A stretch of 64,000 bases of DNA, from assembly GCA_950106755.1 (NCBI GenBank), contig OX467087.1:7320047-7384046 (forward strand), in the 5' to 3' direction. The position numbers and the translations under genes are program-made. The first letter of the stretch is position 1. Each line of letters begins with the position of its first letter. Of the stretch, positions 15,440 through 62,350 are shown piece after piece. The notes under the pieces are model-generated. The model searched no databases, had not been told where the DNA came from, and saw only the letters and a list, made by a program, of their open reading frames with translations. Source of the stretch: Climacium dendroides (Eukaryota; Streptophyta; Bryopsida; Hypnales; Climaciaceae).

Positions 15440-16700
15440 TTTTATAATATTTATTAGTCACTCGGGTAACTTTCTTTTGCGAGTAGATTGTCTTGGGACC
15501 AAAGGTAGACTAGGCACTGGTGGTACTGTACTTGGAGAAGTTTGACTAAAATCATCATTGGGCTCATGGTCATATGTTGGATTTCAAAATACATCATAAG
15601 CACCATTGAAGGCAAGATCATTGTTACCAATTTTGAGTTGACTAAAAGAATCACTTAATCTTTGAGTAATTGTACTTGGACTAGGAGGAGAATTGGCACG
15701 ATCAATTGATTCTTAATTAGATGGATGAGAAGTTTGAAAATGTATATTTGGAATATTTCTCGGTGGAAGATGTTGGTTTAAAATATTATTATTAGTTGAT
15801 AGTGGTGCACTAGGAGACTATTGAAAGAAATTTGGTACCAACTGCAACTCAAGATCTATAACATTTTCAAGATCTGGAAGTTGTAGCTTTGGTATTGTGT
15901 GTAATTTATTTTCTTTAAAAATCACATCTCTAGATATAAGAATGCACTTACTAGATTTATCTTGTAAGCAATAACCCTTGGTTCCATCTTTGTAACCCAA
16001 AAACCAACATTCAATAGATTTGTATTCTAATTGGGATTTTTGTCTAGTATCTTTAGGACGATGCACATAGGCAATGCAACCAAAAAACTTCAAATGTACT
16101 AAATTTGATTTATAACCATGCCATAATTCATAAGGGGTTGCATCTTCAAGTGCTTTAGTAGGTAAGTGGTTTTGAATATAATTAACAATTAATAAAGCTT
16201 CACCCCAATAAAGTTTATTAAATCATATACAATGAAACATAGAAAAGTTGATTCAATTAAAGTACGATTCTTTCTTTCCACTAAACCATTTTGTTGAGGA
16301 ATGTATGGGATTGTTAACTGTCGTTAAATTCTACCTAATGTACAAACTTCATTAAAGGTGGTTGAGGTATATTCCCCCCTCTATCCATACATAATATTTG
16401 AATAGAATTTTGAGTAAATTTTTGGAATAGACTTTAAATTCTTGAAATTTCCTTAGTACTTCACACTTAGCTTTTAGTAAATATGTTATCATATATTGAC
16501 TAAAATTGTCAATAAAAGTAATAAAATATTTAAACTGAGTGTGGGTGGGATGGAAGGGACCTTGGTGGAAGTCGAGGTGGCGAAAAATAAAGATTAAAAT
16601 AAATAGATATTGATCTTCTATGATTGGGTTCTCCTTCCCCTTGTATTCTACAAGTAGCCTCTTTTAATAATCAGTCAGGAGTTTGGCCTAACATTTCAAA
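15440..16700 (-). pseudogene. Copia integrase
   Basis: The minus strand shows GPFHPTHTQFKYFITFIDNF, then YMITYLLKAKCEVLRKFQEF, later GEALLIVNYIQNHLPTKALE, ATPYELWHGYKSNLVHLKFF, and FGCIAYVHRPKDTRQKS with GYCLQDKSSKCILISRDVIF, which is the C-terminal part of Copia integrases. At its start (about 16,690) EATCRIQGEGEP may be what remains of the CxxC end of the pre-integrase zinc finger. Stops interrupt the core. The linker to the polymerase (15,440-15,800) is low in complexity. Confidence 0.88.
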
Positions 16701-30185: not shown

Positions 30186-30322
30186 ACGAAGGCGTGCAAA
30201 GGTTTCCTCAGGCTGGACGGAAATCAACCTTTGAGTGTAAAGGCAAAAGGGAGCTTGACTATCCGTCGAGCACGGACGAAAGTCCTTAGTGATCCGACGG
30301 TACTAAGTGGAAGGGCCATCGC
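30186..30322 (+). rRNA. Fragment of organelle-type 23S rRNA (nuclear insertion)
   Basis: The stretch from GCAACGAAGG to GGAAGGGCCATCGC reads as bacterial/organelle large-subunit rRNA in domain V near the peptidyl-transferase centre: GGACGGAAATCAACC, AGGGAGCTTGACT, GTCGAGCACGGACGAAAGTC, TTAGTGATCCGACGGT and AAGTGGAAGGGCC. A short segment after CTTGACT is missing and several bases differ from what I recall of plastid and mitochondrial genes, so it is old. About 137 bp only, hence a nuclear insertion and not a working gene. Plastid or mitochondrial origin cannot be separated by eye. Confidence 0.82.
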
Positions 30323-36650: not shown

Positions 36651-37842
36651 TAACCCCTAAATGTCCAAGGTTTGTTTTGAGCTTCTTGAAATTTGTTCTA
36701 AATTGAACAAAATGTCAACATTTTGATAAGTTGCATTATTATTTTTGGATTTGTAACCATTCAAATTCAAACTAGACATGTTAGAGATCTCATAGGAAAA
36801 GAAAACATAACAATATCACTTATGGATTGAAAGATTATAATGTTTCATCATGAGGATGTTAAAACTATGAAAATCTTTCAATTCTCTTTTTGCATGTCAA
36901 ATTTAAAAAGTTGGTGACTGGAGGGAGCACTCCCCTTTTTTGATATTAGCGTGCGAATAAAACTTTGGACCTTCTATATACTTTTTGAATTTTAAATAAA
37001 ATTAAATGAAAAAATATGAATAGATTTTTCTACTTTGAAAGTTTATGTTTTGAATTATTGATATTTTTATTTGTTAAAAATAATTAATTATAAATTTTTG
37101 AAGTAAAAAGATACATTGTAGAATTGAAAAATAACTTTCACTCCCTTGTATTATGTAAGAAAAAATTGTCTAAAAAATGAATAAAAATTTCCTAAAAATA
37201 ACTCTATTGAAAGTTCATTTTTAGTTGAATATTGATGCAATGGTCATCTAAATGTGTTCTCTAAAAATATTTGAGTTAAAAAAACATGCCATTTTAGTGC
37301 ATTTTTAACCTCTTCTAGAAATCATTCCATATTTTATTTGAGTTTGAAATTTTGGGAGTAGAATCCTATAGTCATTAGTAATTAATGCTCAAAATTTGAA
37401 GCTAAAATTATAATTTATTAGAAACCACTTTGGTTTGTTGTAGAACTAAGTGAACCCTTCAAGGTTGGAGACTAAAAAATTACAAGGTTAAAGGGCCTAA
37501 TATGTATAACTCCAATCAATTTATGGCTTCTTAAAATCTACTCTATAATTTTTTTAAATGAATTTGAATGTGATTTTTTCTCCAAGATCTAGTGTATATG
37601 GGGCTCGTTTTTAAGAGCTCTCAACAATAGGAAGTCAAGATTACAATGGATACCCTTGCACAAAATTGTGAATTGAAAAATTGCTATCATTTATTTTTAA
37701 GATTAGATTTTTGATGCTAAAATTAGACTTTAAGAACTTTCTAAAAATTATGAATTACTTAAAATAGCAACTTGGTTAGGTTTTATTTAACTTCAAAGTT
37801 TCACAAACACCAAATTTTGGTGCCTCGGGCATTTAGGGGTTA
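36651..37842. mobile_element. TAACCCCTAAATG-family element, copy 2, with nested insertion
   Basis: It starts TAACCCCTAAATGTCCAAGG and ends GGTGCCTCGGGCATTTAGGG followed by GTTA, matching both ends of the element at 2,123-2,515. Internal words such as CAAACTAGACATGTTAGAGA and ATAGCAACTTGGTTAGG are also shared. A 544 bp element is inserted in it at 36,920-37,463, so this one is the older of the two. Confidence 0.75.
36920..37463. mobile_element. 544 bp MITE-like repeat R1, copy 1
   Basis: It starts GGAGGGAGCACTCCCC and ends GTAGAACTAAGTGAACCC. The flanks GTTGGTGACT (36,910-36,919) and GTTGGAGACT (37,464-37,473) agree at nine of ten bases and look like a target duplication. The interior closely matches 48,086-48,631 and more distantly 54,320-54,800. 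No protein is encoded. A 9-10 bp duplication would suit a Mutator-like origin, though the inverted ends are very short. Confidence 0.75.
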
Positions 37843-43600: not shown

Positions 43601-46303
43601 TTTAGGAGTTAGTATGTAGAATATCCATCCATTAACCCCTATAGGAGCATGTAAGAATCCATTCATAGGATCTTGTACTTTATTTATCTAAGATCATGTG
43701 GTAAAAATTTCATAAAGTTTGAGTGTAAAGATTGGAAGATATTAGCATTCTAAGTTGAAAAATAATTTTTTTTTGAACACTAGCCTACAATTTCAAATGA
43801 CTTTGACTACCATTTCTAGAATTCTTTTGTATTATGGACTTTGAATTAAAAAAAAATTGTGTTTAAGAATTGAATTGAAAGTCCTAAAAATAATTTCAAA
43901 ACTTCCCCGCTTGATTTTCATTCTTTAAAAAATTATTATGTAAAAGTAGGTTTAAAATTGAATTAATATTCTATTGTTAATAGCTCTACGATGGAATTGA
44001 AATACAATAATTGCAACAATGAGATTTTTCTAGCAAGTAAACTTAAGGCTTAGCACCTAAATGTCAAGAATCTTCTCCATAATTGACAATTTGAAAAAAA
44101 AAATCATCATAAAGTTCTATTTGGAAGAATACTTTGGAATTGGTATTCAAATAAAAGTTGTAGATCTTGAGTTTTAGATTTCATCCATACAATTAGATTT
44201 ACCATTGCTATCACCAATATTTTTTTCTAAATTTGGAAAGAAAAATTTCAAATCTTTTTTAAAATTTGATAACAAGCAAAATGTTATCTTTTGTTGAGTA
44301 AAATTTGTTGGAATGGATCTGAAATGAAGTTAACTTGACATGGTGATTTTTGGAATTATATATATATATATACACACATATATATGACCTCATTTTTGCA
44401 AATCCAATTTTGAACTAGAGTCAATGCAACATTAGCTTTGTCAACCACTTGACATACTTTCACATTTATAATTTTAGAAAAATAATTATTGTAGTGATAC
44501 CAAATCCAACCATTAGATAGGATAATGACTTGATAAAGTATCTCCACAAATTAGGATGACTTTTGTTTGAGTAGTAATGAGAAAAAATAAGAATACCAAT
44601 TTTTACGTTGTCTAGAAAGTGGACATCAGAGCATTTAGGAGCTAAAAGACATAGGCCCCTATGACCAAGGTAGTCACCAAAACGTAGGGATTTTTGGCCC
44701 AATAGGTGCATTTTCTATTTCTACAATGAATAGTCAAGTCATTCATTGGCCACTTTTTGGCCTCAACATTGTTTAAGGGTTAACCTTGTCAAATTTTTTT
44801 TTTTTGAAAAATTATGAAAATTGTATTCAAAAGTGAATCCTATAAGTTATTTTTTCAAAAAGATGCATAAAGTCCCCAAAACAAGATTGTTCATAACTTT
44901 CACATCACTAATCCAAATGGAATGAATCAAAGTTTCACATGTAGACAAAAATATGATCTATAAGATATAAAAATGTAAAAATATAATTTCAATTTTTTGT
45001 GGATTTATTTTTTTGCTTGGTGACATGAAAATTATATTTAGGATGGCATAAATTTTACTCATGGGCACCAATTGAAATTAAACTTTTATTCCACAAAGCT
45101 AAGAAGTTTTTCTATCTTATGAGGAAGTTTTAAGAAGTTTTACTAAAAATTGTGGTCATAGGAACTTGCCCAAAATCCATTTTCTCTTTTGAGGGGACAA
45201 TAGTCCTTTAGGGATTAAGTTAGGCCGTTTATTTGTTTATTACGTAGAGATCTTCTAGACTGTACATCCCTAGTTGCATTCTTAGAAAGTTATTAAATTT
45301 CAAAAGATTTATGGATCAAAAAATAGAAATTACTTTTACTTTGACAATTATTGTGACAATAGCACAACGCACACTAGTTCTATATTGCACTAGCATGTGG
45401 TGTCTTTTATTTACAACTTAACTACAAACCTAAATACAAGCCAATCTCCATAAATTGAACAGAATATTACAATAGTTTCATTGCCAATAGTCTTCCTTGC
45501 ATTGGCTTAGAGGGAAATAAGGTAAGCTTATGTACACCCATGATCAACTCTGCCCTCAAAATATAATACTTACATTTGGGTCAAAATGTGTCACAAAAAT
45601 CTAGATGTTGTTAATAAAATATGTACATAATCAAAACATGTGAGTCTAAGAGTCTAACGGTGAATTTTATATCAAACTATGATGATGGAATGTATTCACT
45701 TATAAAGAAGTGTCTGAGTGCCTCTTTACATGTATTGGTCATCGAGGGAATTGCATAGCGGGTGCTACAAGGAAAAATAGGAATTGCACTTTCATGTGAA
45801 CCTGGTGGGTGGGGAGGGAAACAATAAAAAATTTACACGTATTAGATTCACTAGTCTCCGCTAATGAGGTTGTCCATCAGTATCAGTGAAATTTCAACTC
45901 CTCTTTTCCCGCTTACCTACCCCAGCAAGACAATCGGTGGAGCCGCTTTTGTCTTCTTGCTTGAATTAGCTGTAAACTTGCCCATTGGGCGAGCATGTAA
46001 GGAGACCTTGAGTTGAGACCATGATCAAACAAAAATAGCATACTATAAAAATAGGTGCCACACAAGGGTGACATTTCTCACCCATAAGTTTTTGGCTTAA
46101 AAATCTAATATGTATTCTATTTTGAAATAAAATTTAATATTCAAAATTTAAATTTCTATTTTGATGTTCAATCTTCAATGCAATGTACATACGAAACAAA
46201 ATCTCATTTTCAATGTCTAATAAAATTCCAGTTTCAATTTTGTACTAAATTGCATAAGAAACTAATATCTAAATATGAATGAATAATGCAAATTCAATGT
46301 CAC
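43601..46303. other. Noncoding repeat-rich stretch
   Basis: No gene is seen. It holds a short TA/CA tract (44,355-44,386) and, at about 44,880-44,950, words like ATAACTTTCACATCA and CCAAATGGAATGAATCAAAG related to 1,590-1,640. The ORFs at 44,356-44,711 on the minus strand are not recognised. Confidence 0.45.
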
Positions 46304-46535
46304 TAGTGTGCCTTGTGCCATTGTCATTGTCAAAAGAAAAAAAATCCTATTGATTTTATTAACTCTTAAAAATTTCCAAATTCAATATTTTGGTCATAAG
46401 TCAAAGCAACATGAAACAAAATCTATGCACCCTTCTTCACAAAGTGCTATCCAACGATACAAAGAATGTGGTCAGGGGATGCATGGTTCTAGAGATCTCA
46501 CCATAACAAACAAAACAAAGTATCTAACTTAAGAT
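46304..46535 (+). repeat. Repeat family R2, single unit
   Basis: It has the layout of the units at 27,472-27,945: GTGTGCCTTGTGCCATTG, GCACCCTTCTTCACAAAG, GGGGATGCATGGTTCTAGAG and an AACAAACAAAACAAAG end. Confidence 0.7.
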
Positions 46536-47599
46536 AGATGTCGGGGAGGTGTTAGGAGGCATAGAGTTTATGAGAACGTCAACTTAGACTAGGCACTTCG
46601 GTTGGGGACCTCAAACTTTTTGACCTTCACGTGGAAATTTTGGAGACTCATCTTTTTCAAGTTGAGTCTCCTACGTGATGGAGTGAGAGGCTTGCCTCAC
46701 GGAACTCCATCCAAACATACAATCATTCTTTAAGAATGGCATTGGCTTGACTTTGTAATTTGTTGTGAGTATTTTCCAGTTTGTTTAGAAGCTTTTCTTC
46801 ATGTTTATTACTTGAAAAAGATATCATTACGTTTATAGGTATGTATGTAGTGAAAATTTACACCTAAAGTAGTACAAAATTGGGTTTTAGAGTGTTTTTG
46901 AGGTGTTTTGTATGTGCTGGAATTGCAAGAGAGCTTAAAGCTTTGGCACCATAACCATGTTTCTAGGGTGTTTTAGGATTGAAAATGGGTTCTAGACCCA
47001 TTTATAAGAGTTAGGTGCATTATTAGCCTTATTTTGGGGACAAAAAGAGGACAACAATAAGAAAGGGGTGGATTAGAAATGAGCCACCTAAGAGAGTCCT
47101 AAACTTGAGGGGGAAGGTTTGTCTCTCCCCTAAAATCCCTCTAGGCTAGTTGGGAGGGGATAACCTGTACTGTATCTGGGGATTTATGAGGGAATGTGTT
47201 GTAGTAGGGAATGGTACATTTGCTTGGAGAGGGACTATTCAATCACAAGTGTGAGGCTTCTGATGGAGCGCTTTGATCTGCAAGAATCTTCTGGCATCCT
47301 AGAGTCAACGGTCGTCTAGTCTCACAGACAAGATCCTAGTTCATGGGAGGGGTGTTCGTCGCCAAGGCGGAGGAGGACATGCTAGTGACGGTGAATCTGG
47401 TGCCCAAGAGAAGCATATCCTTGTGGATAACAAGGATAGAGTACCGCAAGTAGAACCCACTTAGGACACCACAGAGTTTGGTTCTGTGGAAGAAACAACC
47501 AAAGCGTTTGTTCCAAGGGCTTCTGAATGTCATCAACCAGGTAGCTTTTGTATTGCCGATTCATATTCTGGAGCTGTTGTCCGTCATGTTTTGAACTCA
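46536..47599. other. Noncoding, with possible outer remains of the AMT1 pseudogene
   Basis: 46,536-47,300 shows no gene. 47,300-47,600 is GC-richer, with overlapping ORFs on both strands. The minus strand could be decayed AMT1 coding sequence further downstream, but I cannot match it to specific motifs. Confidence 0.35.
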
Positions 47600-48034: not shown

Positions 48035-48085
48035 CGCGGCTCTCGTGGTGTAGACAAGAGTAGTGCTGTGGACGAAGACGGGGAC

Positions 48086-48631
48086 TCGGGGGGTGCATTC
48101 CCCTTTTTTTGATGCTAGTGTGTGAACAAAACTTTGGACCCCCTATATACTTTTTGAATTTTAAATGAAAATATATAAATAGATTTTTTTACTTTGAAAG
48201 TTTATGTTTTGAATTGTTGATATTTTATTTTTTGATAATAAATAGTTACAAATTTTTGAAGTAAAAAGATATATTGTAAAACTCAAAAATAACTTTCACA
48301 CCCCTATATTATATAAGAAAAAATTGTCTAAAAAATGAACAAAAATTTCTTAAAAATAACTCTCTATTGAAAGCTCATTTTGAGTTGAATATTGATGCAA
48401 TGGTCATCTAAATGTGTTCTCTAAAAATATTTGAGTTAAAAAAACATTCCATTTTAGTGCATTTTTAACATCTTCTAGAAATCATTTCATATTTCATTTG
48501 AGTTTGAAATTTTGGAAGTAGAATCCTATAGTCATTAGTAAACAATGCTCAAAATTTGAAGTTAAAATTATAGTTTATTAGAAACCACTTGTTCACATGC
48601 GGTTTGTTGTAGTAGAACTAAGTGTACCCCC
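48086..48631. mobile_element. 546 bp MITE-like repeat R1, copy 2
   Basis: This is the closest relative of 36,920-37,463, sharing most of its length (for example GAATATTGATGCAATGGTCA and GAGTTTGAAATTTTGG). Its ends are rich in G and C: GGGGGGTGCATTCCCC and GTAGAACTAAGTGTACCCCC, giving a short inverted terminus GGGGGGT(A/G)CA. CGGGGAC occurs directly on both sides (48,079-48,085 and 48,632-48,638) as a possible target duplication. It sits upstream of the AMT1 start. Confidence 0.75.
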
Positions 48632-49329: not shown

Positions 49330-49745
49330 GCTGTTGAGTGTAATTATGATGATCCTTATGCCCACCTGAGAGAGCAGCGTCAAATTGTGACTCTTGAAGA
49401 GCTGTTTGAGAAGGTACATTTTTCTGCCATTTTACTTCGGTTTCTACATGATCATGTGTTGGAACAAGGGTTGCAGTATCATGATGAACAACAATGGACT
49501 TGGTGGCAGGAAGATTTAGCTTGAACTTAAGAGGGTGACATAGAAGGGTTCAAGGTAGCAGCTCATTGATTATTTTGTGGGCTTACACTAGTCATTACCT
49601 TGGAAGGGTGGAATATCGATCACTATAAGATTCTTGAGGATTGCTTACATGTACAAATTGCTAACAAATTGATGGACGTGATTGTGTACATGGGGGGTAA
49701 CTACATCAATTCATCCAATTTATTGAAGGATTGAGTTCTCAAGTT
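49330..49745 (+). pseudogene. Gypsy polyprotein, N-terminal region
   Basis: One frame reads through with a few stops: NYDDPYAHLREQRQIVTLEE, LFEKVHFSAILLRFLHDHVL, QQWTWWQEDL and, after stops, IDHYKILEDCLHVQIANKLM then DVIVYMGGNYINSSNLLKD. The consistent frame and low stop density argue for coding origin. I do not recognise the domain. From its position it is the start of the element's gag polyprotein. Confidence 0.55.
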
Positions 49746-50119
49746 CAAAGCAATAGCAGTAGGAATAGTGAATTTTTTCTTTAGAACTAGCAATGTAGTT
49801 GGTTAGTTTTAGTTTTGGAGTGTAATTGGTAACATGTACCAATGACCAAACACTTCTTTTATTTCTAAGTGAGAGTTGATTTTTCCATACATGACATGTA
49901 ATTAACCTTTTGTGGGCTTTAGCTTGGGTTTGCAATGGTGGGTTGGACTATATGGTATCACCATGGACAAGAGAAAGGGTGTCCCCAAGCCTTTTAGACT
50001 AATATCAATTAAAGAAATGAAAGAAAAAAGAATTCGAATTGACTTGACTGAGGAAGAGTTCCAAGGTGTTTGAATCCTTCCAAAGTCTTCAAGTAGGATC
50101 ATTGGGTAAGTTACCTCCA

Positions 50120-50432
50120 AGACATCAACTTCAAGAACCATTGCTTGATTTATATTATCACCGTTGGCTTGAGATCGACTTGAGGTGCAATCATTCAAGT
50201 AGCCAGATATCAAAATTTTGAGTCTAAAAGCCATCAAGTTGTGGACTTAACAATGAGGGGTGAGCATCATTCGTGGCCAATGAACAAAGAGGCATGTGAT
50301 CAAAGCCCCACTAAGTCAGTCAAGGGGTCGGGTGGAGGCGGTGGATTTGGTCATTCCACGAGTGGCGGTTGTGCTAAGAAACGAGGGTCAACGCCGGAAA
50401 GTGGTAAGACATATTTCCAAGGAAAAAATTAA
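50120..50432 (+). pseudogene. Gypsy polyprotein, basic Gly/Ser-rich linker
   Basis: An open frame contains VVDLTMRGEHHSWPMNKEAC, SPTKSVKGSGGGGGFGHSTS and CAKKRGSTPESGKT. This is a low-complexity, basic segment upstream of gag of unknown role. 49,746-50,119 between this and the N-terminal block is disturbed by stops, and 50,433-50,640 shows no clear domain. Confidence 0.4.
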
Positions 50433-50639
50433 ATTGCCAACATTTTTGTTGATTTTCACTGAATTTTGAGCTTGGAACTACTTGTTCCACACTACTTGGC
50501 AGTGGAAACAAGGTTGGTGATTAGAGAGGGCATCCAATATTTGAGAATCCTTGATACTCAATTTTATCAATTTGGAGGTGTCACCAACGATTTATTATAC
50601 CTATACGCCCTCAAAATCAAGTAAGTTATTTACAGATAC

Positions 50640-51450
50640 TAATGAATAGCAAGTGGATTGGGTGGAAGATATTGAAAGTGACAAATGAGAAGATTTTCTA
50701 GTCAATACAATTGACCATGGAGTAAGACTCGCACATAGCAAATCTATATTTATTTGGGACGAGATAGCCACACCATATAGTGGTATTGATCGAGGAGTCC
50801 GGCGGTTTTCTAGTGTCAATGGCACCATGGAAGTGGATGATTTCCATAGAGAATTCACCATGTGGTGTGAACTCTAGAAATCACAAAACCCTAGTTTCAA
50901 TCCATATATTGTGTGGAGAGCATTATTTGGGTGCCTTGAAGAAGTACCCTTGGCAAATTATGGAAAATTTGAGTTTGTTCATTCCATGGAGATCTTGGTC
51001 TGGAGAGATTACTATGACCCAAATTATGCTGATGTGTGGGAAGAGGGATCCAATGCTATGGTAACCACTAACAAGAGAAAGAAGGAGGAAAGAGACATAA
51101 GCATGGGAGGATAGAATACCACCGTGACCACAAGCCCAATACCAGTGGTAGATCCACCATCCTTCAATCCTACTGCACAGTTTTTCTTGCAAGTGCAACA
51201 GGATTATTATGGACAAAGAGCTAATAAAATGAAGTTATTTCGCACATTCGCACGTGGAAGTGATGAGTCTTTGCGACAAGTGCATTTGAAACTAAGGCGG
51301 TTAATTTCTACCACACATGGAGTGATTGAACAACAGACTGTTCAACACTAGTATAGTATTTTGGACAAAGAGTTAAAAACTCTTGTTCGAGGTGAGGCCT
51401 TGAGGTTAGGTGTACTACCAACCTTGAGGTATGTTTTTTAGACTTCTAAA
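50640..51450 (+). pseudogene. Gypsy gag core
   Basis: The frame holds VNGTMEVDDFHREFTMWCEL, PSFNPYIVWRALFGCLEEVP, ANYGKFEFVHSMEILVWRDY, YDPNYADVWEEGSN, then NPTAQFFLQVQQDYYGQRAN, ESLRQVHLKLRRLISTTHGV and LDKELKTLVRGEALRLGVLP. The repeated tryptophans and long helical segment before the zinc knuckles suit a capsid-type gag. Several stops are present. The subfamily is not known to me. Confidence 0.65.
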
Positions 51451-51571
51451 AATTTGAAATTAATCTCTTGGAAAAAAAGGCAACCATGGGATTCTTGTAC
51501 AAGAAAGAAAAACCACAAAAAAGATCAAGTTAGCTAAAGCAAGCATTCTAGATAACACAGGAGATGTCGAC

Positions 51572-51802
51572 ATGATATGCTTCAATTGCAAGGGCATTGG
51601 TCACAGGCGACAAGATTATAAGAAGACATCTTGCAAGGATACACCCAAAACTAGAGGGTTTTGCTTTGGTTGCGATATCAAGGGCCATGTGGAAGTAAAT
51701 TGTTGGAACGATAACCTCAAATTCAAGCACAAAAGCACAAAAGATATTATAGGCAATGATTCTAAGGAGGCCAAGTTCATGGGAGGAGAAAAGAAATCAT
51801 AG
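51572..51802 (+). pseudogene. Gypsy nucleocapsid zinc knuckles
   Basis: Two knuckles lie in one frame. CFNCKGIGHRRQDY has tyrosine where the last cysteine is expected, while CFGCDIKGHVEVNC is intact (C-x2-C-x4-H-x4-C). Basic residues surround them, and MGGEKKS ends the open frame. This marks the end of gag and the approach to protease. Confidence 0.85.
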
Positions 51803-52498
51803 AAGGTACGTTTTACAAAGTTAGAGGCTAAGATAGCAACCATAAGTGCTACTGCTACTGCCAAAGGGTCCTCTTCACAACACAACGCAACTTCATTTTA
51901 TGCAGAGGAAAGCGATTAGATGCTATGTGGCATGGCAGATGCTCAAGACACACCAATAGATGCTTATGCGATAACCAAGAGTAAGATATGATACATGATG
52001 CACCACGAGAGGCAAGTTTGAGGTTAAATCTACAAAGAAGTGAGGCCAACCGCCAAGCCAGATTGCCGGAGTCATTTATACTCAAAAATATAGTGCCTAC
52101 ATCGTCTATGATTCCACCACGCCAAAATTCGAGCAGGTAATGGGCTGCTTGGGCTCTATATGATAATGGACAAGATACAAGCATATTCTTTGATGCAGCA
52201 ACCACGGTTTGTCAAGCTCCTTTATTTTCAGCATCCATGATTTCACAAGTACAATTTAGTGGTACTATGATGTTCCAATTGGCAACTACCATGTGTGAGG
52301 GCAACACTTCAATATCGGTGAGTTCCATAAAAGCAGTGCTTGAGCCGCAGGCAATGCTTGGCGGTGATTGGACTAAAGCAGAAGAGCTTTTCTTAGTCGC
52401 TGCTTGAGTAAAAAACTATGTTAATGCGCTCGACAATAGAACAGTCCTCCATTATTCTAACGGTGGTGGTATTGAACAATTCTTAAGGCATTTTCTAA

Positions 52499-52831
52499 TT
52501 GGTCGGGCTCAAAGGGAGAGTTTTTAAGCCTCAACGGGTACTATTGGATTTCGATGCACAACCCATGATGTTAGGTGAATCAGCAATTGAGGGCTTGAAT
52601 TTGACCGAGGATACGCTGAAAATGTGTCCGTGGACAATTAATACTTCTATAGAAGGGACTGAGCAAGCAAATGGTATCACGAATAGCAAATTGATACTAC
52701 AATTACACGATGATGATGTTGAAGATGCTAGCTTCATAAAGGTGAAGGCTATAGTTATGGAGACCAAGTCATATGATGTTTTGGTTGGGGCTCTGGTATT
52801 GTACCTTATGGGCTTCACCTTAGACTTTTGA
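52499..52831 (+). pseudogene. Gypsy aspartic protease
   Basis: RVLLDFDAQPMMLGESAIEG stands where retroviral-type proteases have D-S/T-G-A, so the active-site motif is read here as DFDA, a loss of the usual Ser-Gly. KSYDVLVGALVLYLMGFTLD follows, like the ILG block near the end of these proteases. The frame is open for 110 codons. The region 51,803-52,498 before it is coding-like in broken frames (for example MMFQLATTMCEGNTSISVSS). Confidence 0.75.
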
Positions 52832-53006
52832 AAAGAAACAACATACTGCAAATCGGGATGGCAAACAAGAAATGGGCGTAAAGCTCAACTGCTTGCTCCT
52901 TTTATACGAGTTCTTACTAGCAATTTGGCTGATTTCTATTGTTTTATTGGGCTTATGGTCAGGGGGCAATTATGATTTGAAGAGGATTTTGAAAATACTC
53001 TTATTG

Positions 53007-53771
53007 CACTACTAGAAAATGGTGTTCAACTCAACAAAAATTTAACAATTTTTTGTTGACTAGGATACTGTATTGACCATTTTAACAATTTTTTCTTGAT
53101 TTGAACAAGCTAACAAAATGGTCACTAAATTTTTGTTGATTCAAATAGTACAACATCCAAATCAACAAAAAGTTAACACTTTTTTGTTAAGAAGACATGC
53201 CTCTCATACACTAGTGATATAAGAGAGGTGACTTTGGTGACATAAGAGAAGAGAAGATAAGCTCTTTATAGAAATAGAGTAATAAAAGGTCAAAATAAAC
53301 CATATAGGATATGTAAATCATTTATAGTCTTAATTCACATATCTCATATGGTTTGTTCTACCTTCTACCACCCCATTTCTATAAAGAGATTGTCTACTCT
53401 AATCTCCTATCACCAAAGTCACCTCTCTTCTATCACCAAATATTGAGTTTTAAGAAACTTGTCTCCTAAATTAATTGTAAAGTCTAATTTTTTCTAATTA
53501 AATTATAAAATTTAATTTTTGGTCCTATTTATGTGTTGTTTTTGGCCTACATGGTAGAATGCACTGAGCTGGTTCTTGGCTTGCCATGTGGCAGCCATTC
53601 ATTGAGCAAATTTAAAATGAATTAATATTATTTTTTTATTTGACCACCATAACAAAATGGACAACAATTTTTTATTAGGTACTGTCCAAGACAACGCGAC
53701 CATGGATACAAATGCCCTAAACACTTTTTTGTTAATTTTTTGTTGATATGGTCACTGTTTTTCTACTAGTG
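53007..53771. mobile_element. CACTA-type non-autonomous DNA transposon
   Basis: The ends CACTACTAGAAAA and (inverted) CACTAGTAGAAAA match the CACTA terminus, and the 3 bp TTG is duplicated on both sides (53,004-53,006 and 53,772-53,774), as expected for this superfamily. Subterminal TTTTTGTTGA words recur at both ends. The middle (about 53,219-53,440) is a large imperfect hairpin with GAGAGGTGACTTTGGTGA against TCACCAAAGTCACCTCTC. It has no coding capacity. Removing it with one TTG restores the retroelement frame across the site. Confidence 0.93.
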
Positions 53772-53932
53772 TTGCCACTTCATTGGATGTCATCCAATGC
53801 GATGGTCATCATGATAGTGAGAATGTTGAGGGCAACATGTTGTGTCAACCCAGCATGGAAGCGGTATGAGAGAGTACCGTCAGATTACAAGAAGTGACCA
53901 ACAAAGTCATCTAGGAAGTATAGTAACAATCA

Positions 53933-54316
53933 TTGTTACCACAAGAGGATAAAACAATTGAAAGTGAGGACAATGACGGTCCTCCCTTAGACACTTCAAC
54001 AATCCAATGGAAGCCACCAGAAGACGGTATTACACTTTTGGAGTTAAATGGTGGTATTGACATTGGGTTGGCAATCGTATTGCAGGCAGGCATGACAATG
54101 AAGTGTTACATTTATGTAGATAATGATGATATGGCATAGCAAGTAGCCAAGCGCCATGCACGGTATTTGCGCCGAGCATTTCCATCATTATTACACATCA
54201 AGGCTATTATGACCGCATTTTTTGCACTATCAAACGATATTTCACTCATCTCGCTATAGGACATTGTCTAATTGGGGCCGGTAGACTTGATTATTGTGGA
54301 ATGGTCATGCCAAGGT
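53933..54316 (+). pseudogene. C5 DNA cytosine methyltransferase domain, N-terminal part (in Gypsy element)
   Basis: One frame reads STIQWKPPEDGITLLELNGG followed by IDIGLAIVLQAGM, corresponding to the AdoMet-binding motif I (usual form ELFxGxGG), then YIYVDNDDMA, the acidic motif II position, QVAKRHARYLRRAFPSLL, SNDISLISL, and GPVDLIIVEWSCQG, corresponding to motif IV with the catalytic cysteine codon at 54,308-54,310. The Phe of motif I is Asn, the proline before the cysteine is Ser, and three in-frame stops lie between the motifs, so it is inactive. It sits between protease and reverse transcriptase and shares their strand. The enzyme would have moved methyl groups to cytosine C5 in DNA. 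Right after motif IV the sequence changes to repeat R1. Confidence 0.88.
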
Positions 54317-54805
54317 ATCTATCATAAAATACATTTTAAAATTTAATTTAAAAAAAAATTATGGATAGATTTTACTACTTTAAAAGTTTATGTTTTGAAT
54401 TATTGGTATTTTTTATGCTAATAGTAATTAGTTATAAATTTTTTAAGAAAAAAGATACACCATAAAGCTGAAAATAACTTTCACACCTCTATATTATATA
54501 AGAAAAAAAATTTGAAAAATGAAAAAGAAATTCTATAGAATAGTTCTCTATTGAAAGTTTATGGTTGAATATTGATACAATAGTCATCTTCATGTGAGCT
54601 CTATAAATATTGTAGTTGGAGGACATGCCATTTTAGTTCATTTTTCAACCCTTTCTAGACAATATATCTTATGTTATTTGGAATTGAAATTTTTGTCAAT
54701 AGAAACCTTTAGTCATTGTTAAGCAAAGCTCAAAATTTTAGGATGAAATTATAGTTTATTCAAAAGTAAATAGGAGGTCAAAAAATCACTCCTCCACACG
54801 TGGGT
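54317..54805. mobile_element. MITE-like repeat R1, copy 3 (diverged) inside the methyltransferase
   Basis: From about 54,350 to 54,760 the sequence follows the interior of the copies at 36,920-37,463 and 48,086-48,631, for example GTTTATGTTTTGAATTATTG and TTGAATATTGATACAATAGT. The outer 40-60 bp at each end do not match the other copies, so this copy is older or truncated. It separates methyltransferase motif IV from motif VIII. Motifs V-VII are not visible, so some coding sequence was lost with it. Confidence 0.7.
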
Positions 54806-54821
54806 ACCTTAAATGTAGTGA

Positions 54822-55435
54822 GAGTGTCTTCCCCGTGCCGAGGCAACAGCGGTGGGCTCCAAGGCTTATAGGTCACAACTTTGGTAGACCAATTTGGCAC
54901 CACCAGAGCTATTTTATGCTACAATTAGACATATTCAATAGTTTGATGTGTATGTGAAGAATATCTTAGACCTTCACCAATCACCATGACATGTTTATCA
55001 TGATGATCAAGCACCACTTACGGTGGTCAACCGCAAAGATGAACCACAAAGAGCTTTGCCAACATTGGTGGGTTTTTCATGGTCCTATACATTCAAGGAC
55101 AATGGTCTGAGTTTGGTATGGGATGCCCATATCGAGGAAAAGGTTGAGTCTAATGCTGATGAGAGAGAACAAGCCATGGGATTTCAAACAAATATCACCT
55201 AGGCACTAGGCATCGGTGAGTTTCAAAGGTGATATCTCATTGGCCAAGCCATGGATTTAAATTGTCTATCATGGATTGTTTCTCTTGTATCAACCAAACA
55301 GAAGCAGTTAACTTCAACATTAGGTGGTCACTTGGTTTTTTATGAGCTGCAAGCAACTATGAAACTACCAAGTTCTAAAAGTCTAGACTTGGTGGTTGGG
55401 GGCAAAGAGGCCTTTACAGCTCACCTATAGGACAT
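54822..55435 (+). pseudogene. C5 DNA cytosine methyltransferase domain, C-terminal part (in Gypsy element)
   Basis: A single frame with few stops gives EATAVGSKAYRSQLW then TNLAPPELFYATIRHIQ, where the R-x-R/WTNL type block corresponds to motif VIII. It continues HVYHDDQAPLTVVNRKDEPQ, RALPTLVGFSWSYTFKDNGL, LVWDAHIEEKVESNADEREQ, AMGFQTNIT (motif IX-like ERxxxMGF..T) and, after a stop, LIGQAMDLNCLSWIVSL, which fits motif X (GN..xV type). The order and spacing complete the C5 methyltransferase fold begun at 53,933. After it SLDLVVGGKEAF closes the open part. Stops within VIII and after IX show decay. Confidence 0.85.
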
Positions 55436-55659
55436 ATAGAAAAGTTATTCTTTGAAGAATACATATCGGATCAAACGGAAGGATTATGGTATTTGAGCCA
55501 AGTTGAAGAGTGATACAATATGGTGGGTATGAAGCAAGATGAATCTATTCCAAGTGGTGTGCAATAGCAACCAAAGGTGGAAAAATCTGCTTCAAAAGAA
55601 GAACAAAAGGAGGCAGTGACCAAGGAAACGTGAAAACTGTTAGTAGGTTAGCAAATAAA

Positions 55660-56470
55660 CAATGGGAACAAGAGTTTTTCAAAAGTCACATAGATTGTTT
55701 TGCATTCAATCTGAAGGACTTGGGAGTTCTTTAGGGACAGAAAGTACGTATTAATTTGACAGATGATGCACCAATTTATCGCAAACCATACAAATATAGT
55801 GAGGTAGAACGCAAGATGATTCAAGACTGAACCAAGGAATTGTTGGAGGCCGGATTGATAGAGTTAGCACCTTCGGATTGTAAATATGCATCAGCAACGG
55901 TTATATCATTTATAAAAGACGTTTTTAGTAATTGGATGGAAAAAAAGATGTATGGAGATTATCAAAGAATTAATAAATTAACGAAGTCTGACCGTTATGC
56001 AATGCCAATACCAGAGGAGAACTTTGACGCCATCAGCCATGCCGAGGTATTTAGTACTTTAGATCCCCATTCGAAATATTACCAACTTGGTATTTGAAAA
56101 GGTGATAAGAAAAAAATGGCATTTTGAGGAATTGATGAGGATAAAAAGGGCTAACTTTATCAGTGGAGATTCCTTCCCTTTTGGTTTGAAAAATGCACTT
56201 GTTGAGTTCTAGAGAGTCATGGATCATATATTTTTAGGCTTAGATTTTGTGAAATGCTACATTGATGACATTATTATCTATAGTATGCATCAAAATCAAC
56301 ATAGAACTTACTTGAAGGAGGTTTTTACTAGACTAAGACTTCATGGCTTAAAATTGCATCCAAACAAATGCAAGTTTTATTATAACTGTATAGAGTACTT
56401 GGACCACATAATATATCTTGGTAGATTGGGTGTGATAGCTAGCAAAGTGGAAGTGATGATTTCTATATGA
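55660..56470 (+). pseudogene. Gypsy reverse transcriptase
   Basis: FKSHIDCFAFNLKDLGVL, VRINLTDDAPIYRKPYKYSE, LLEAGLIELAPSDCKYASAT, YQRINKLTKSDRYAMPIPEE and HAEVFSTLDPHSKYYQLGI are the palm and finger blocks of Gypsy polymerases. DFVKCYIDDIIIYS carries the catalytic Y-x-D-D intact at 56,258-56,269, and LRLHGLKLHPNKCKF follows. Frameshifts near 56,100-56,215 break the gene between the two ORFs. Confidence 0.93.
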
Positions 56471-57127
56471 AGATCGAAGGATGTAAGTAGATTGCGGGCA
56501 TTTTTGGGATTGTGCAATTACTATTGAAAGTTTGTAGAGACGTTTAGTGTCATTGCAAAGCTATGGACCATGCTGATGAAGAATGATCAATCTTGGATTT
56601 AGGAAGATGAACAAGAGGCCACCTTCAATCAACTAAAGGAGTGTTTATCATCGGCATCTATCTTGAGGAGGCCAATTTTTGATAGAACATATCAATTGCA
56701 TATGGACTAGGACTCACTGGGGATTGGTGCGGTATTGACTCAAATAGATGATGATAGCAAGGAGTTTATGGTAGCTTATGCTAATCACTCCAACAACAAC
56801 ACGGAGGCATAGTATTGCTCATATGAAGGAGAATGTTTAATAGCAATTTGTACCATTGCCCACTTTCATTATTATTTATATAGCATCAAATTTTTATTGG
56901 TTACAGACCACCAATTGTTGAAGTGGCTCATGGAGTCCGACAAGCTCACTAGCAAGCTTGTACGATGGACTTTGATGCTAATAGAGTATAACTTTAAAGT
57001 TGTGCACCATGTTGATTTGGTAAATATGGATGTTGACAGCTTGAGCCACAATCCAAGTCTTAGCCAAATGGACTCTATAGGGGCCCAATGGCACGTGGAG
57101 GAGGCAGAAGATATTTTACCATGTTAG
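56471..57127 (+). pseudogene. Gypsy RNase H
   Basis: SRLRAFLGLCNYY and FVETFSVIAKL link polymerase to RNase H. Then LKECLSSASILRRPIFDRTY, DSLGIGAVLTQIDDDSKEF, YSYEGECLIAI-like residues (read CSYEGECLIAICTIAHFHYY) and LLVTDHQLLKWLMESDKLTS, RWTLMLIEYNFKVVHHVDLV with DSLSHNPS. This is the standard Gypsy RNase H (RT_RNaseH) pattern, with stops at several places. Confidence 0.9.
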
Positions 57128-57329
57128 CATTTTGCCACCTATTTGAGTTTATTGGCAATAACTAGAGACGTTATCAAAGAAACCATCATGGCCACAATGA
57201 ATGTGGATAGTAGTAAAGAATCTAAGGGTGTCAAGGACATTTTTGAGGATGGGGACGTTATGAAGTATTTGAAACATGGTGAATTGGCAACCATAGTGTC
57301 AGCCAAGGAAAAGGACCAAATTCTACAAT

Positions 57330-58115
57330 GAGCAAAAAGGTTTGTTTGGCAAGGGGCTCATTTACTTTGAATATGGCCAGATAGCAACAAAAAAGTGTCG
57401 GCGCCTCATGAGAGTGAAGTTAGTGATGCATGCACATGAGGACTTGGAGCACTTTGGAGTGCGAAGAACTCACAACTTGCTATAGATTCACTACTAGTGG
57501 CGAGGTATGCAAATTCAATAGGTAGTAGCTAAATGCATGGTTTGTAATAGAGTGCGAGCATCATTTAATGCCCCAATGCCTTAATTACAATCATTGTCAA
57601 TCAAGAGATTGGACTATAGGTGGAGTTTGGACTTTGCAGGATCATTGTCGGTAACATCACGACACAATAAGTATGTGTTGGTGATGATTGAGCACTTTTC
57701 TAAATAGATCGAGTTGGTGGCATTGCTTGACAAGTTCAGTGAAGGGACAACTTATTCATTTTTGAATTGAGTGTTAAGTCACTTTGACGTTCTAGCTGAG
57801 GTATTGACTAACCAAGGTCGTAAGTTTCTTGGTGAATTTCAAGCCTTGAGTGAACAAGCTATGATTGATCACCACACTACGTCAAGAAATCATCTCGAAG
57901 CAGATAGATTGGTAGAGTGTATGGTACAAACAGTTAAGAGGGGACTTCGGAAATATAGCTTGAAGAAGGGTCATCATAGAAATTGGGACTTACAACTACC
58001 ATGGATAACAATGGGCTATCAATTTAATAAAAAACCATCTCTGGCTTTTTTTCACCCTATTATTTATTGTTTGGGTGCCAACCGGTTTTATCCATGGCTA
58101 TCAAACAAGATGTAG
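57330..58115 (+). pseudogene. Gypsy integrase (HHCC finger and catalytic core)
   Basis: HEDLEHFGVRRTHNLL, HY, then KCMVCNRVRASF form the H-H-C-C zinc finger (about 57,430-57,570). The core shows LDYRWSLDFAGSL (first Asp), VLVMIEHFSK, EVLTNQGRKFLGEFQAL, in which the second catalytic Asp (DQG) is read as Asn, and HLEADRLVECMVQTVKRGLR with the glutamate. NWDLQLPWITMGYQFNKKPS closes the core. One catalytic residue and several frames are lost. Confidence 0.9.
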
Positions 58116-58597
58116 ACAAGATATTGAATGATTTAGATGATCTGGACACGTGGGCACACGTCTGCAAACAACGGGCGGATCTATATAAGAGAGTTATGTC
58201 AATGGCTTTGGAGAAGCCTTCTATTGCACAATATAGAGACACTTTGCGTTATGCAACGATACAAGAAGAGGATTATCGACCTCAAATACGATGTTTTCTG
58301 CTAAACGATTATATTTACTTGCAACAGACAGCGCCAACCATCCTCAACATGACTGCAAGGCGTATTATCCTACAAGCGCATGAGGTACTCAAGTCTAATG
58401 TGCTACTCTTGGAAGGACGTGATGGCAAAATCTGGAAAGATCACACGCGCAATTGTACGACATGTCATTTGCCACACATAGACGGACATATTGATTCGAG
58501 TAATTCACAGATTTTAGTTGGGTTGAAATGTGTGTTGTGTGGAAGTGCCAAGCGCACTGCCACTATGATTTTGTATGATGTTTGTTCTATAGGATAG
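58067..58597 (+). pseudogene. Integrase C-terminal extension
   Basis: After the core a 176-codon open frame continues FGCQPVLSMAIKQDVDKILN, DLDTWAHVCKQRADLYKRVM, QEEDYRPQIRCFLLNDYIYL, QQTAPTILNMTARRIILQAH, VLLLEGRDGKIWKDHTRN and CTTCHLPHIDGHIDSSNS. NDYIYLQQ stands where Gypsy integrases have the GD.V.l..p block before a chromodomain, but no chromodomain follows. The frame runs directly into the PHD-like module at 58,529. It is one of the longest open stretches of the element. Confidence 0.75.
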
Positions 58598-58663
58598 TAC
58601 ATAGATTGTTTGAATCTTCCTCTAGAAGAAATTCTAATGGGCTGGTGGGTTTGTCTCAAGTGT
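58529..58663 (+). pseudogene. PHD-finger-like zinc module at the polyprotein C-terminus
   Basis: In the frame of the integrase extension the spacing is C-x2-C-x11-Y-x2-C-x4-Y-x2-C-x14-C-x2-C (CVLCGSAKRTATMIL, YDVCSIG, stop, YIDCLNLP, then GWWVCLKC). This equals the C4HC3 pattern of PHD fingers with the third Cys and the His both read as Tyr, and the tryptophan that normally precedes the His as a TAG stop, one base from TGG. The W two residues before the last Cys pair is also typical. PHD fingers bind histone H3 tails. Decay has changed two of eight zinc ligands. After this the frame is not recognisable to 58,880. Confidence 0.78.
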
Positions 58664-59137
58664 ATGTCGGGGCATGGACAAACATCAACATTCTAGTATG
58701 GGTTTTCCATTGGGTTCTCGTTGGTACTCCAGGAAAGGCCACTGAATTCACTAGTGTGAAAGGGGCTTCAGCAACAACAAAGGAGGCGAATAAAAGAGTG
58801 GTTGTAAAACCACTTTCTACACTTGGTGCACTGAGTATTATGGATGATTTATTTCCTTTACTATGCTCTAGATGTCATTAATGTTTAGTACTTATAGTGA
58901 TAGGATGTTTTTTGCATTTCTATCATATTTTACAAACTTTTACCGTGATTGTGACTCACATCACAAGTCACAAGGCGTTTTTCCTATGACTACGGTGTCC
59001 ACCGTTGGTCAGGAGCTATTGGACCTTGGTATGGTTAGATTGCTAGCCAATTACAAGGTCTATTGTTGACTTATTGCAAGCTTTTTCTCATGTGGGCTCG
59101 ATATGATCTTGGCACAATGTATTTGTGCACAATATAG

Positions 59138-59395
59138 ACTAGTGTGTCCTATGCCGTTGCTATAGTGAGTATAGTCAAAATAAAGTAAAAAAAACATTTT
59201 TTATTTTTTAAAATCTGAAATTAATTTAAAAATTCATAACTTTTACACTACAAGTTGAAGTGCTATGAAACAAAGCCCATGCACCCCACCTTGCAAAGGG
59301 CTTTTTGACAATACCAAGCATGCGACTAGAAGATGCATTGTTCTGAGATTTTAGTGTAACAAGTAAAACAAATAAATAGCCTACTTAAGGTATGG
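59138..59395 (+). repeat. Repeat family R2, single unit
   Basis: It has the same layout as the units at 27,472-27,945: GTGTGTCCTATGCCGTTGCT, GTCAAAATAAAGT, AAGCCCATGCACCCCACC, TTGCAAAGGGCTTTTTGACA and AAGCATGCGACTAGAAGATG, with an AACAAGTAAAACAAAT end. It follows the Gypsy element closely. Confidence 0.72.
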
Positions 59396-61647: not shown

Positions 61648-62350
61648 GAGTGCCCTGTGGCGTTGCCACAATCAAAACAAAAATAAAAGAAATTTTTTTA
61701 GTTTTTTTAGAACCAAAAACAACTCAAAAATCCATAACTTTCTCACCGTGAGTTGGAATGCCATGAAACCAAGCCTCTGCACCCCTCCTCGTCGAGAGCT
61801 TTCTGACGGTACCAAAATTGTGACCAAAATATAAGAAAAAGTAATTTTTTAATTTTTTAGAACCAAAAATAACTCAAAAATGCATAACTTTCACGCCGTA
61901 CTTCCAAACAATACAAAACCAAGCCAGTGCACCCCTCCTCACCAAGGGCTTTCCGACAATACCAAGCACATGTGTCTTGTGTTGTTGTCACAGTCAAAAC
62001 AAAAGTAAAAGTAATTTTCTAATTTTTTAGTTCATAAAAATACTTCAAAATTCAATAACTTTCACACTGTACGTCCGAACGCCACGAAACCAAACTTATG
62101 TACCCCTCCTTGCTGAGGGCTTTCCGACGGTACCAAGATTGTGACCGAAATATAAGTAAAAGTAATTTTCTAATTTTTCAGAACAAAAAATAACTCAAAA
62201 ATGCACAACTTTCACACCGTACATCCGAACGCCACGAAACCAAGCTGGTGCACCCCTCCTTGCCGAGGGCTTTCCGACGGTACCAAGCACGCAACCGGGG
62301 GACGCACGGTTCGGGAGATCTCAATGTGACAAACAAAATAAACCACCTGT
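61648..62350 (+). repeat. Tandem array of repeat family R2, about four units
   Basis: Units begin near 61,650, 61,815, 61,972 and 62,135. Each holds AAAGTAATTTT(C/T)TAATTTTT, ATAACTTTCAC(A/G)CCGTA or AACTTTCTCACCGTGAG, CACGAAACCAAGC, a GCACCCCTCCT word and GGGCTTTCCGACGGTACCA. Units one and three start with GTGCCCTGTGGCGTTGCCAC or TGTCTTGTGTTGTTGTCACA, and units two and four with ATTGTGACC(A/G)AAATATAAG, so the array looks like two copies of a two-unit block. Only the last unit has the complete CGCACGGTTCGGGAGATCTC and AACAAAATAAACC end. Confidence 0.78.

What the first reader, a model, noticed from the sequence alone, without database searches (positions are those of the whole stretch)
53933..55435. 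DNA cytosine methyltransferase domain inside a plant Gypsy retrotransposon
Seen: between protease (52.5-52.8 kb) and reverse transcriptase (55.7 kb), on the same strand, lie motif I (LLELNGGIDIG), motif II-like YIYVDNDD, motif IV with catalytic Cys (LIIVEWSCQG), a motif VIII-like block (SKAYRSQLW, stop, TNL), a motif IX-like block (DEREQAMGFQTNIT) and a motif X-like block (LIGQAMDLNC), in the order of C5 methyltransferases. Known: as I recall, retrotransposons with captured cytosine methyltransferases have been reported in dinoflagellates and charophyte algae. I am not aware of one in a vascular plant. Inference: the element carried its own methylation writer, perhaps to keep new copies methylated and tolerated or to act on host methylation. 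This copy is inactive, but a family consensus could show an intact enzyme.
Basis: partly seen in the sequence, partly recalled or inferred. Interest (0 to 1): 0.95.

Follow-up and report, generated by a model that had tools for sequence, protein, structure and literature searches.

The report
Retrotransposon carrying its own DNA methyltransferase
A dead copy of a plant retrotransposon still shows a DNA-methylating enzyme domain of the DNMT3 type, and many sister copies in the same genome carry it at the same place; the arrangement was known from a green alga and is shown here in a land-plant-like genome.

Summary
Window 53,984-55,370 (+) holds a decayed C5-cytosine methyltransferase of DNMT3 type between protease and reverse transcriptase of a Ty3/Gypsy element (gag 50.8 to integrase 58.5 kb). 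The copy is dead: stops, a CACTA-type insert at 53,007-53,771, and a dispersed repeat at 54,329-54,760 where about 70 residues including motif VI are missing. It is no one-off. Of 53 family RT places picked in the window's own 413-Mb genome, 34 have a Pfam DNA_methylase match upstream on the same strand; of 8 of the other 19 fetched, 5 keep clear MTase sequence, 2 remnants, 1 none. Three MTase-bearing lineages coexist; most young copies (repeat pairs 96-99% identical) keep motifs I, IV, VI, IX and X. These have split direct repeats (A-coding-B-A-B), TG...CA ends and 4-bp target duplications, as if an integrase inserted a permuted DNA. Named relatives occur in Marchantia, Riccia, Calypogeia, Sphagnum and Closterium. 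The kind was published in 2018 from the charophyte Klebsormidium; a 2019 paper says it is absent from land plants. 'Vascular plant' is not supported: the host is a non-flowering streptophyte, perhaps a moss. What the enzyme does is inferred, and signs of selection on it in this genome are weak.

The parts
49692..59129 (+). Extent of the Gypsy copy that aligns with sister copies of subfamily A (two nested inserts included); true ends not found
   Evidence: blastn against L015, L016, L018, L019, L020, L023, L026
50782..51462 (+). gag region
   Evidence: tblastn with Marchantia P0117, 37% identity, E 4e-41
52412..53006 (+). protease region and start of the linker
   Evidence: tblastn P0117 52,412-52,957; P0114 52,655-53,008 at 56%
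53007..53771 (.). nested CACTA-type element (ends CACTACTAGAAAA / TTTTTCTACTAGTG) with 3-bp duplication TTG
   Evidence: flank print; P0114 residues 118-120 bridge the gap; 7 of 7 sister A copies stop at 53,002-53,008 and resume at 53,772-53,802. Naming of the family by its ends is recalled.
53984..54319 (+). methyltransferase N half, motifs I to IV (Cys codon 54,308-54,310), with stops
54329..54760 (.). dispersed repeat lying in the methyltransferase; related copies at 36,913-37,457 and 48,080-48,629; about 70 residues incl. motif VI are missing here
   Evidence: gap P0114 300 to 370
54840..55370 (+). methyltransferase C half, motifs VIII to X, with stops
   Evidence: tblastn P0114 58% identity, E 3e-60
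55675..57367 (+). reverse transcriptase and RNase H (PF17917 at 56,813-56,989)
   Evidence: tblastn P0134, E 2e-137; Pfam 3e-12
57585..58459 (+). integrase (rve type)
   Evidence: tblastn P0152 E 1e-37 and P0153 66% identity; PF00665 on P0152 and P0153

Best explanation
Shown: this is an old, dead copy of a family of Ty3/Gypsy retrotransposons in which a DNMT3-type C5 cytosine methyltransferase is a regular part of the polyprotein, in the order gag, protease, MTase, RT, RNase H, integrase. Shown for young sister copies (subfamily B): termini TG...CA, 4-bp target duplications, and repeats arranged A-coding-B-nn-A-B, with one copy that is A-coding-B only. Inferred: reverse transcription makes a cDNA whose terminal repeat is B-nn-A; it closes into a circle with one or two repeats; the integrase cuts at the B/A joint, so that a two-repeat circle gives A-coding-B-nn-A-B and a one-repeat circle gives A-coding-B. 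Inferred, about 40%: the MTase, made in the same particle as RT and integrase, methylates the fresh cDNA before or at integration (shielding it, or making the copy look like host-methylated DNA).
For: Colinear match of relatives over the whole element. 34 of 53 hand-picked family RT places have PF00145 upstream on the same strand, 29 of them within 2.2 kb; the window is one of the other 19, and of 8 more of these fetched, 5 have clear MTase, 2 remnants, 1 none. 17 of the 20 best PF00145 places are element copies. DNMT3 type: profile E 1e-20 to DNMT3A against 1.5e-9 for 4onj (a DRM, recalled), 4e-6 for DRM2 and 1e-7 for HaeIII; the 50 fold matches listed are DNMT3 structures. Motifs in subfamily B. 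Repeats, ends and duplications: A-coding-B-nn-A-B complete in 3 copies; target duplications identical in 3 of the 5 copies with both ends read (GATT, TTTG, GGAA), and 3 of 4 letters with one T/C difference in the other 2.
Against: No activity can be shown. Ka/Ks among young B copies is about 1 in the MTase (median 1.05, 28 pairs) and RT (0.98, 27 pairs), i.e. neutral decay; among A copies 0.61 for MTase (28 pairs) against 0.25 for RT (15 pairs), so the MTase is less constrained. 6 of 8 B copies have 1-2 stops in the MTase stretch. No primer-binding site was recognised, so the order of reverse transcription is inferred. The repeats could not be resolved in the window copy or in L026.
Confidence: 0.72

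Rival explanations
1. A one-off: a piece of a host methyltransferase gene landed by chance in this one Gypsy copy.
For: The window copy is interrupted and in two frames.
Against: The same domain sits between protease and RT in sister copies and in protein records of other genera.
Confidence: 0.01
2. Passenger: the MTase was captured long ago and is now a tolerated relic that adds little to transposition in this genome.
For: Ka/Ks of the MTase is above that of RT in subfamily A and about 1 in B; 6 of 8 B copies have MTase stops.
Against: Three lineages in one genome and relatives in liverworts, mosses and a charophyte remain alignable at roughly 30-66% identity with most motifs kept, hard to see without constraint; B copies also show Ka/Ks near 1 in RT, so that figure mostly reflects decay after insertion.
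Confidence: 0.2
3. The MTase acts in trans on host chromatin or on RNA rather than on the element's own cDNA.
For: DNMT3-type enzymes act on chromosomal DNA (established knowledge); B copies differ mostly by transitions (1297 against 103 transversions over 28 pairs), denser per site at CG and CHG than CHH, as if the copies were methylated by some enzyme.
Against: The host has its own DRM and DNMT3 genes, which can explain that pattern; the comparison repeats (33:18, 44:40, 45:41, 39:17) are AT-rich and not matched. Position inside Pol suits cDNA.
Confidence: 0.2
4. The host is a vascular plant, so the element family crosses into tracheophytes.
For: The window's MTase clade is separate from the clade of named bryophyte proteins; DNMT3 genes persist in gymnosperms (PMC6453930).
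Against: No vascular plant among the names given; 413 Mb, ten contigs of about 28-52 Mb among the hits, and a window GC near 34% suit a moss better (recalled comparison). The marker-gene search did not complete.
Confidence: 0.15

Closest known systems
KnitGypsy-Dnmt3 of Klebsormidium nitens (de Mendoza et al. 2018, PMC5890265)
   Same: Gypsy domain set with a DNMT3 in the Pol polyprotein, intronless, and repeats 'the same as that of a DIRS retrotransposon' (Fig. 4 legend; passages read).
   Different: The host here is a streptophyte with DRM and DNMT3 genes and three such lineages; TG...CA ends, 4-bp target duplications, the B-nn-A joint and an A-coding-B form are described here; no Klebsormidium protein is named, so direct kinship was not tested.
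SymbioDIRS-Dnmt3 (same paper)
   Same: DNMT3 in Pol and A-coding-B-A-B repeats.
   Different: DIRS RT with a tyrosine recombinase instead of an rve integrase; the paper treats it as an independent capture.
Marchantia P0117 and P0134, Riccia P0077, Sphagnum P0153, Closterium P0152 (database records); also Calypogeia P0118 and P0081
   Same: The first five are colinear with the window over the parts they cover.
   Different: Named only as hypothetical, uncharacterised or unnamed proteins in the listings; I saw no paper on them. The Calypogeia records were aligned in the MTase only.
DNMT3A/3B
   Same: Motif order, profile and fold.
   Different: No ADD or PWWP region was looked for; about 20% identity in the fold alignment.

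Membership tests
Gypsy-Dnmt3 retrotransposons (KnitGypsy-Dnmt3 kind) | Gypsy domains PR, RT, RNase H, rve integrase on one strand | tested here: met
   PF17917; PF00665 on relatives
Gypsy-Dnmt3 retrotransposons (KnitGypsy-Dnmt3 kind) | DNMT3-type MTase inside Pol | tested here: met
Gypsy-Dnmt3 retrotransposons (KnitGypsy-Dnmt3 kind) | DIRS-like A-coding-B-A-B repeats | tested here: inconclusive
   complete in 3 subfamily B copies, partial in others, A-coding-B only in one; not found in the window copy or L026
Gypsy-Dnmt3 retrotransposons (KnitGypsy-Dnmt3 kind) | Key catalytic residues conserved | tested here: not met
   window copy lacks motif VI and has stops; most sister B copies keep the motifs, so I read this as decay of one copy
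Gypsy-Dnmt3 retrotransposons (KnitGypsy-Dnmt3 kind) | Common descent with the Klebsormidium element | not tested
   no Klebsormidium sequence named among the hits
DNMT3 | Linear motif order I to X, not rearranged as in DRM | tested here: met
   relatives
DNMT3 | Closest to DNMT3 among solved C5 MTases | tested here: met
   relatives' profile; model of P0114, (mean pLDDT 55; 213 of 550 residues at 70 or more)
DNMT3 | De novo methylation activity | not testable with these tools
   PMC5890265 found it for SymbioDIRS enzymes, inconclusive for the Klebsormidium one (passage)
DIRS (tyrosine recombinase) elements | Tyrosine recombinase and no target duplication (recalled definition) | tested here: not met
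   rve integrase and 4-bp duplications; no search for a recombinase model was run
DRM | Rearranged motifs and best match DRM2 | tested here: not met
   contrast host gene piece in L009, DRM2 E 1e-57

The most novel reading that the evidence does not exclude
DNMT3-bearing Gypsy elements are an ancient streptophyte lineage that survived into land plants, and they move by an unusual route: reverse transcription gives a circle whose B/A repeat joint, not the cDNA ends, is the integrase substrate, and the element's own methyltransferase marks that DNA before it enters the chromosome.
Probability: 0.3. Interest if true: 0.8.

Novelty: new member of a known kind. Interest (0 to 1): 0.55.

Why it matters
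A mobile element that carries the writer of the mark used to silence it is a direct handle on the contest between transposons and DNA methylation. A 2019 paper (PMC6338049, passages read) states that such elements are not present in genomes of land plants; database records from the model liverwort Marchantia and from mosses contradict that, and young copies in the window's genome make the question testable in tractable plants. The permuted ends with target duplications also pose a clear mechanistic question about how an integrase chooses its DNA ends.

Tried and rejected
Pfam on window pieces gave nothing for the MTase: too decayed, not absent. IMG/VR scan with P0038: 1 stretch, no relative. 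Host identification: a Copia piece (11,363-12,004 -) found 4 proteins at E<=1e-30, none named; an rRNA fragment was not followed; the LFY search (PF17538) did not complete. Junction-pattern counts over the genome did not complete either. Paired remnants at 46.33-46.53 and 59.18-59.37 kb (69%) as terminal repeats of the window copy: not accepted, since the same unit recurs at 61.7-62.3 kb. Selection as proof of function: rejected, see Ka/Ks. Transition excess as proof of self-methylation: rejected, controls not matched and host enzymes suffice.

Rows dropped before counts: one search scored 150 of 1360 candidates, found 197 matches and printed part of them. I kept 53 places by hand: identity 49% or more, one row per element (three of them N-half rows only); the second clade at 43-47% and second rows of the same element were left out and not checked for MTase. 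The 20 best of the 50 PF00145 places were fetched; of the 16 PF00145 places without family RT, four (L009, L023, L027, L028) were examined. Of the 19 unpaired RT places, the window and 8 others were examined, 10 not. Trees: one search holds 101 protein rows that span the C half (of 157) and the window; one search holds 32 of those, the window and 16 own copies (L019 fell short). In one search pairs with under 50 codons or Ks not above 0.01 were left out.

Full report
1. What is there. The C-half piece finds 113 proteins (129 candidates), best E 5.2e-66, 59% identity over 99%. Most are unnamed JGI metagenome proteins; the organisms named are Riccia sorocarpa, Calypogeia fissa and Sphagnum jensenii. 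A search for longer proteins (44 hits, composite query) names Marchantia polymorpha, Calypogeia fissa, Sphagnum troendelagicum, Sphagnum fallax and Closterium sp. NIES-54. No vascular plant is named in either list. Window MTase pieces alone match no Pfam model; of the relatives scanned, 4 of 9, 6 of 7 and 8 of 8 match PF00145 DNA_methylase, two of these 18 below the curated cut-off.

2. Anatomy of the window copy. tblastn of relatives lines up the whole element on the + strand: gag 50,782-51,462, protease 52,412-53,008, MTase 53,984-54,319 and 54,840-55,370, RT and RNase H 55,675-57,367, integrase 57,585-58,459. Two foreign pieces break it. 53,007-53,771 has CACTACTAGAAAA / TTTTTCTACTAGTG ends and a TTG duplication. 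54,329-54,760 is a dispersed repeat with relatives at 36,913-37,457 and 48,080-48,629; here about 70 residues of P0114, including motif VI, have no counterpart. This copy cannot make an enzyme.

3. Type of enzyme. A profile of 14 relatives (A2) matches DNMT3A at 1e-20, 4onj (listed as DNA methyltransferase; a DRM, recalled) at 1.5e-9, HaeIII at 1e-7, HhaI at 3e-6, DRM2 at 4e-6. A model of P0114 (mean pLDDT 55; 213 of 550 residues at 70 or more) finds DNMT3 structures in all 50 matches listed, of 148 with E<=0.001. The motif order is linear, unlike DRM.

4. The same genome. The window lies in a 412.6-Mb assembly with 50 PF00145 matches, a lower bound. The 20 best places were fetched with flanks: 17 hold protease and MTase of the element. 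L009 is a host DRM gene (piece matches DRM2 at 1e-57); L028 looks like a second DRM by its likeness to L009 (read by eye; PF00145); L027 is a DNMT3-type host gene (one piece matches DNMT3A at 2e-7; its two pieces match no Pfam model). RT follows the MTase on the same strand in 15 of the 17 (in L021 after a gap; in L019 and L023 not within the stretch). An RT search gave 197 matches. Of 53 places I picked as this family, 34 have PF00145 upstream on the same strand, 29 within 2.2 kb. Of the 19 without, the window is one; 8 others were fetched: five keep clear MTase, one a 22-residue remnant, one an inverted fragment that may not belong to it, one nothing in 2.4 kb. Ten were not examined. So the domain belongs to the family.

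5. Lineages. The C-half tree puts the window with six sister copies (SH-aLRT 99) inside a clade of unnamed metagenome proteins (subfamily A), nine copies in another clade (B, 96) and one copy, L021, with P0145 in a third (100) (quick tree). Named bryophyte proteins form a clade of their own. In one search (no own copies but the window; bootstrap not settled; midpoint root) the bryophyte clade and the window's clade group together (99/87) apart from the proteins that B falls among; one search leaves this join open. If one search is right, A and B parted before A parted from the bryophyte proteins.

6. Age and state. Subfamily A copies are 69-82% identical to the window in DNA. Four B copies show repeat pairs 95.9-99.3% identical over 92-343 bases, so B moved recently. 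In the 8 main B copies (L010-L014, L017, L022, L025) the motif scan found I in 7, IV in 7, VI in 8, IX in 7, X in 7, and VIII by a strict pattern in 5. Two of the 8 have no stop in the MTase stretch; I did not look for a fully open element. Ka/Ks medians: B 1.05 MTase, 0.98 RT, 0.96 RNase H, 1.10 protease, 0.72 integrase; A 0.61 MTase, 0.25 RT, 0.38 RNase H, 0.41 protease, 0.34 integrase (6 pairs). Between A and B silent sites are near saturation (pS 0.79 MTase, 0.89 RT), replacement 0.41 and 0.28. This tells against strong selection on the MTase within this genome; much of it is decay after insertion.

7. Ends. In copy L022: A 101-440, B 9,243-9,349, A 9,352-9,694, B 9,695-9,801. L012 and L014 have the same four repeats; L025 has A, part of A, B; L017 only A-coding-B; L011 is rearranged; for L010 and L013 only the first A was found. 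Seven located A starts read TGTCA(C/T)GTGAGG with different flanks; the outer B ends in ..CGACA (..CGATA in one). Flanking letters: L012 GATT/GATT, L022 TTTG/TTTG, L017 GGAA/GGAA, L014 ATTT/ACTT, L025 TTCA/TCCA. In the four copies that have it, B and the next A are separated by two letters, as in a joint between two cDNA ends. A G-rich purine run stands before B in five copies; no primer site was recognised. The reading that fits is integration of circles cut at the B/A joint. This is inference. PMC5890265 gives the DIRS-like repeats of its Klebsormidium element in a figure legend; the passages I saw do not describe ends, target duplications or an A-coding-B form for it.

8. Methylation traces. 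Pairwise MTase stretches of the 8 B copies differ by 1297 transitions and 103 transversions; counts against available sites are CG 227/448, CHG 312/446, CHH 758/2891 (pairs are not independent, so only the ratios mean anything). Four repeat pairs of the window give 33:18, 44:40, 45:41 and 39:17 but are AT-rich. This suggests that the copies are methylated in all contexts by some enzyme; host DRM and DNMT3 suffice. No MTase-free Gypsy was available as a control.

9. Host. DRM is restricted to streptophytes (PMC12344493, passages) and DNMT3 was not found in angiosperms (PMC6453930, passages). With both, the host is a non-flowering streptophyte. Genome size, ten contigs of about 28-52 Mb among the hits and window GC near 34% suggest a moss (recalled comparison). 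The LFY test did not complete.

10. Literature. Seen as passages: PMC5890265, PMC6338049, PMC12344493, PMC6453930; everything else as search listings. [quoted passage not shown] I saw no paper reporting DNMT-bearing Gypsy elements in land plants in the listings; searches failed, and most subscription papers are not held, so absence from print is not established.

11. Verdict. A real, regular part of a Gypsy family, DNMT3 type, a new member of a published kind, now in a non-flowering streptophyte genome with several lineages and informative ends.

Noticed in passing
window 36913-37457, 48080-48629, 54329-54760: Three copies of an AT-rich dispersed repeat, 77-87% identical.
   Followed up: partly
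window 30196-30322: Decayed piece of a bacterial-type 23S rRNA (Rfam RF02541, 73.5 bits), probably plastid DNA (recalled).
   Followed up: no
window 11360-12004 and 15818-16222, - strand: Copia-like polyprotein remnants; the first matches P0158 at 64% (PF07727), the second was read by eye only.
   Followed up: partly
window 61660-62300, also 59170-59380 and 46300-46540: About 150-base unit present four times in a row, with single relatives on either side of the element.
   Followed up: partly
genome places at 43-47% identity: A second, more numerous Gypsy clade, many with long open frames (up to 1564 codons); not checked for an MTase.
   Followed up: no
P0156 (metagenome protein, 1408 aa): A distant MTase-like start (15.9 bits, below the Pfam cut-off) followed by G-patch, integrase and a PHD finger: a different mix in another retroelement.
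   Followed up: no
L009, L028, L027: Host cytosine methyltransferase genes: one DRM, a probable second DRM and one DNMT3 type.
   Followed up: partly
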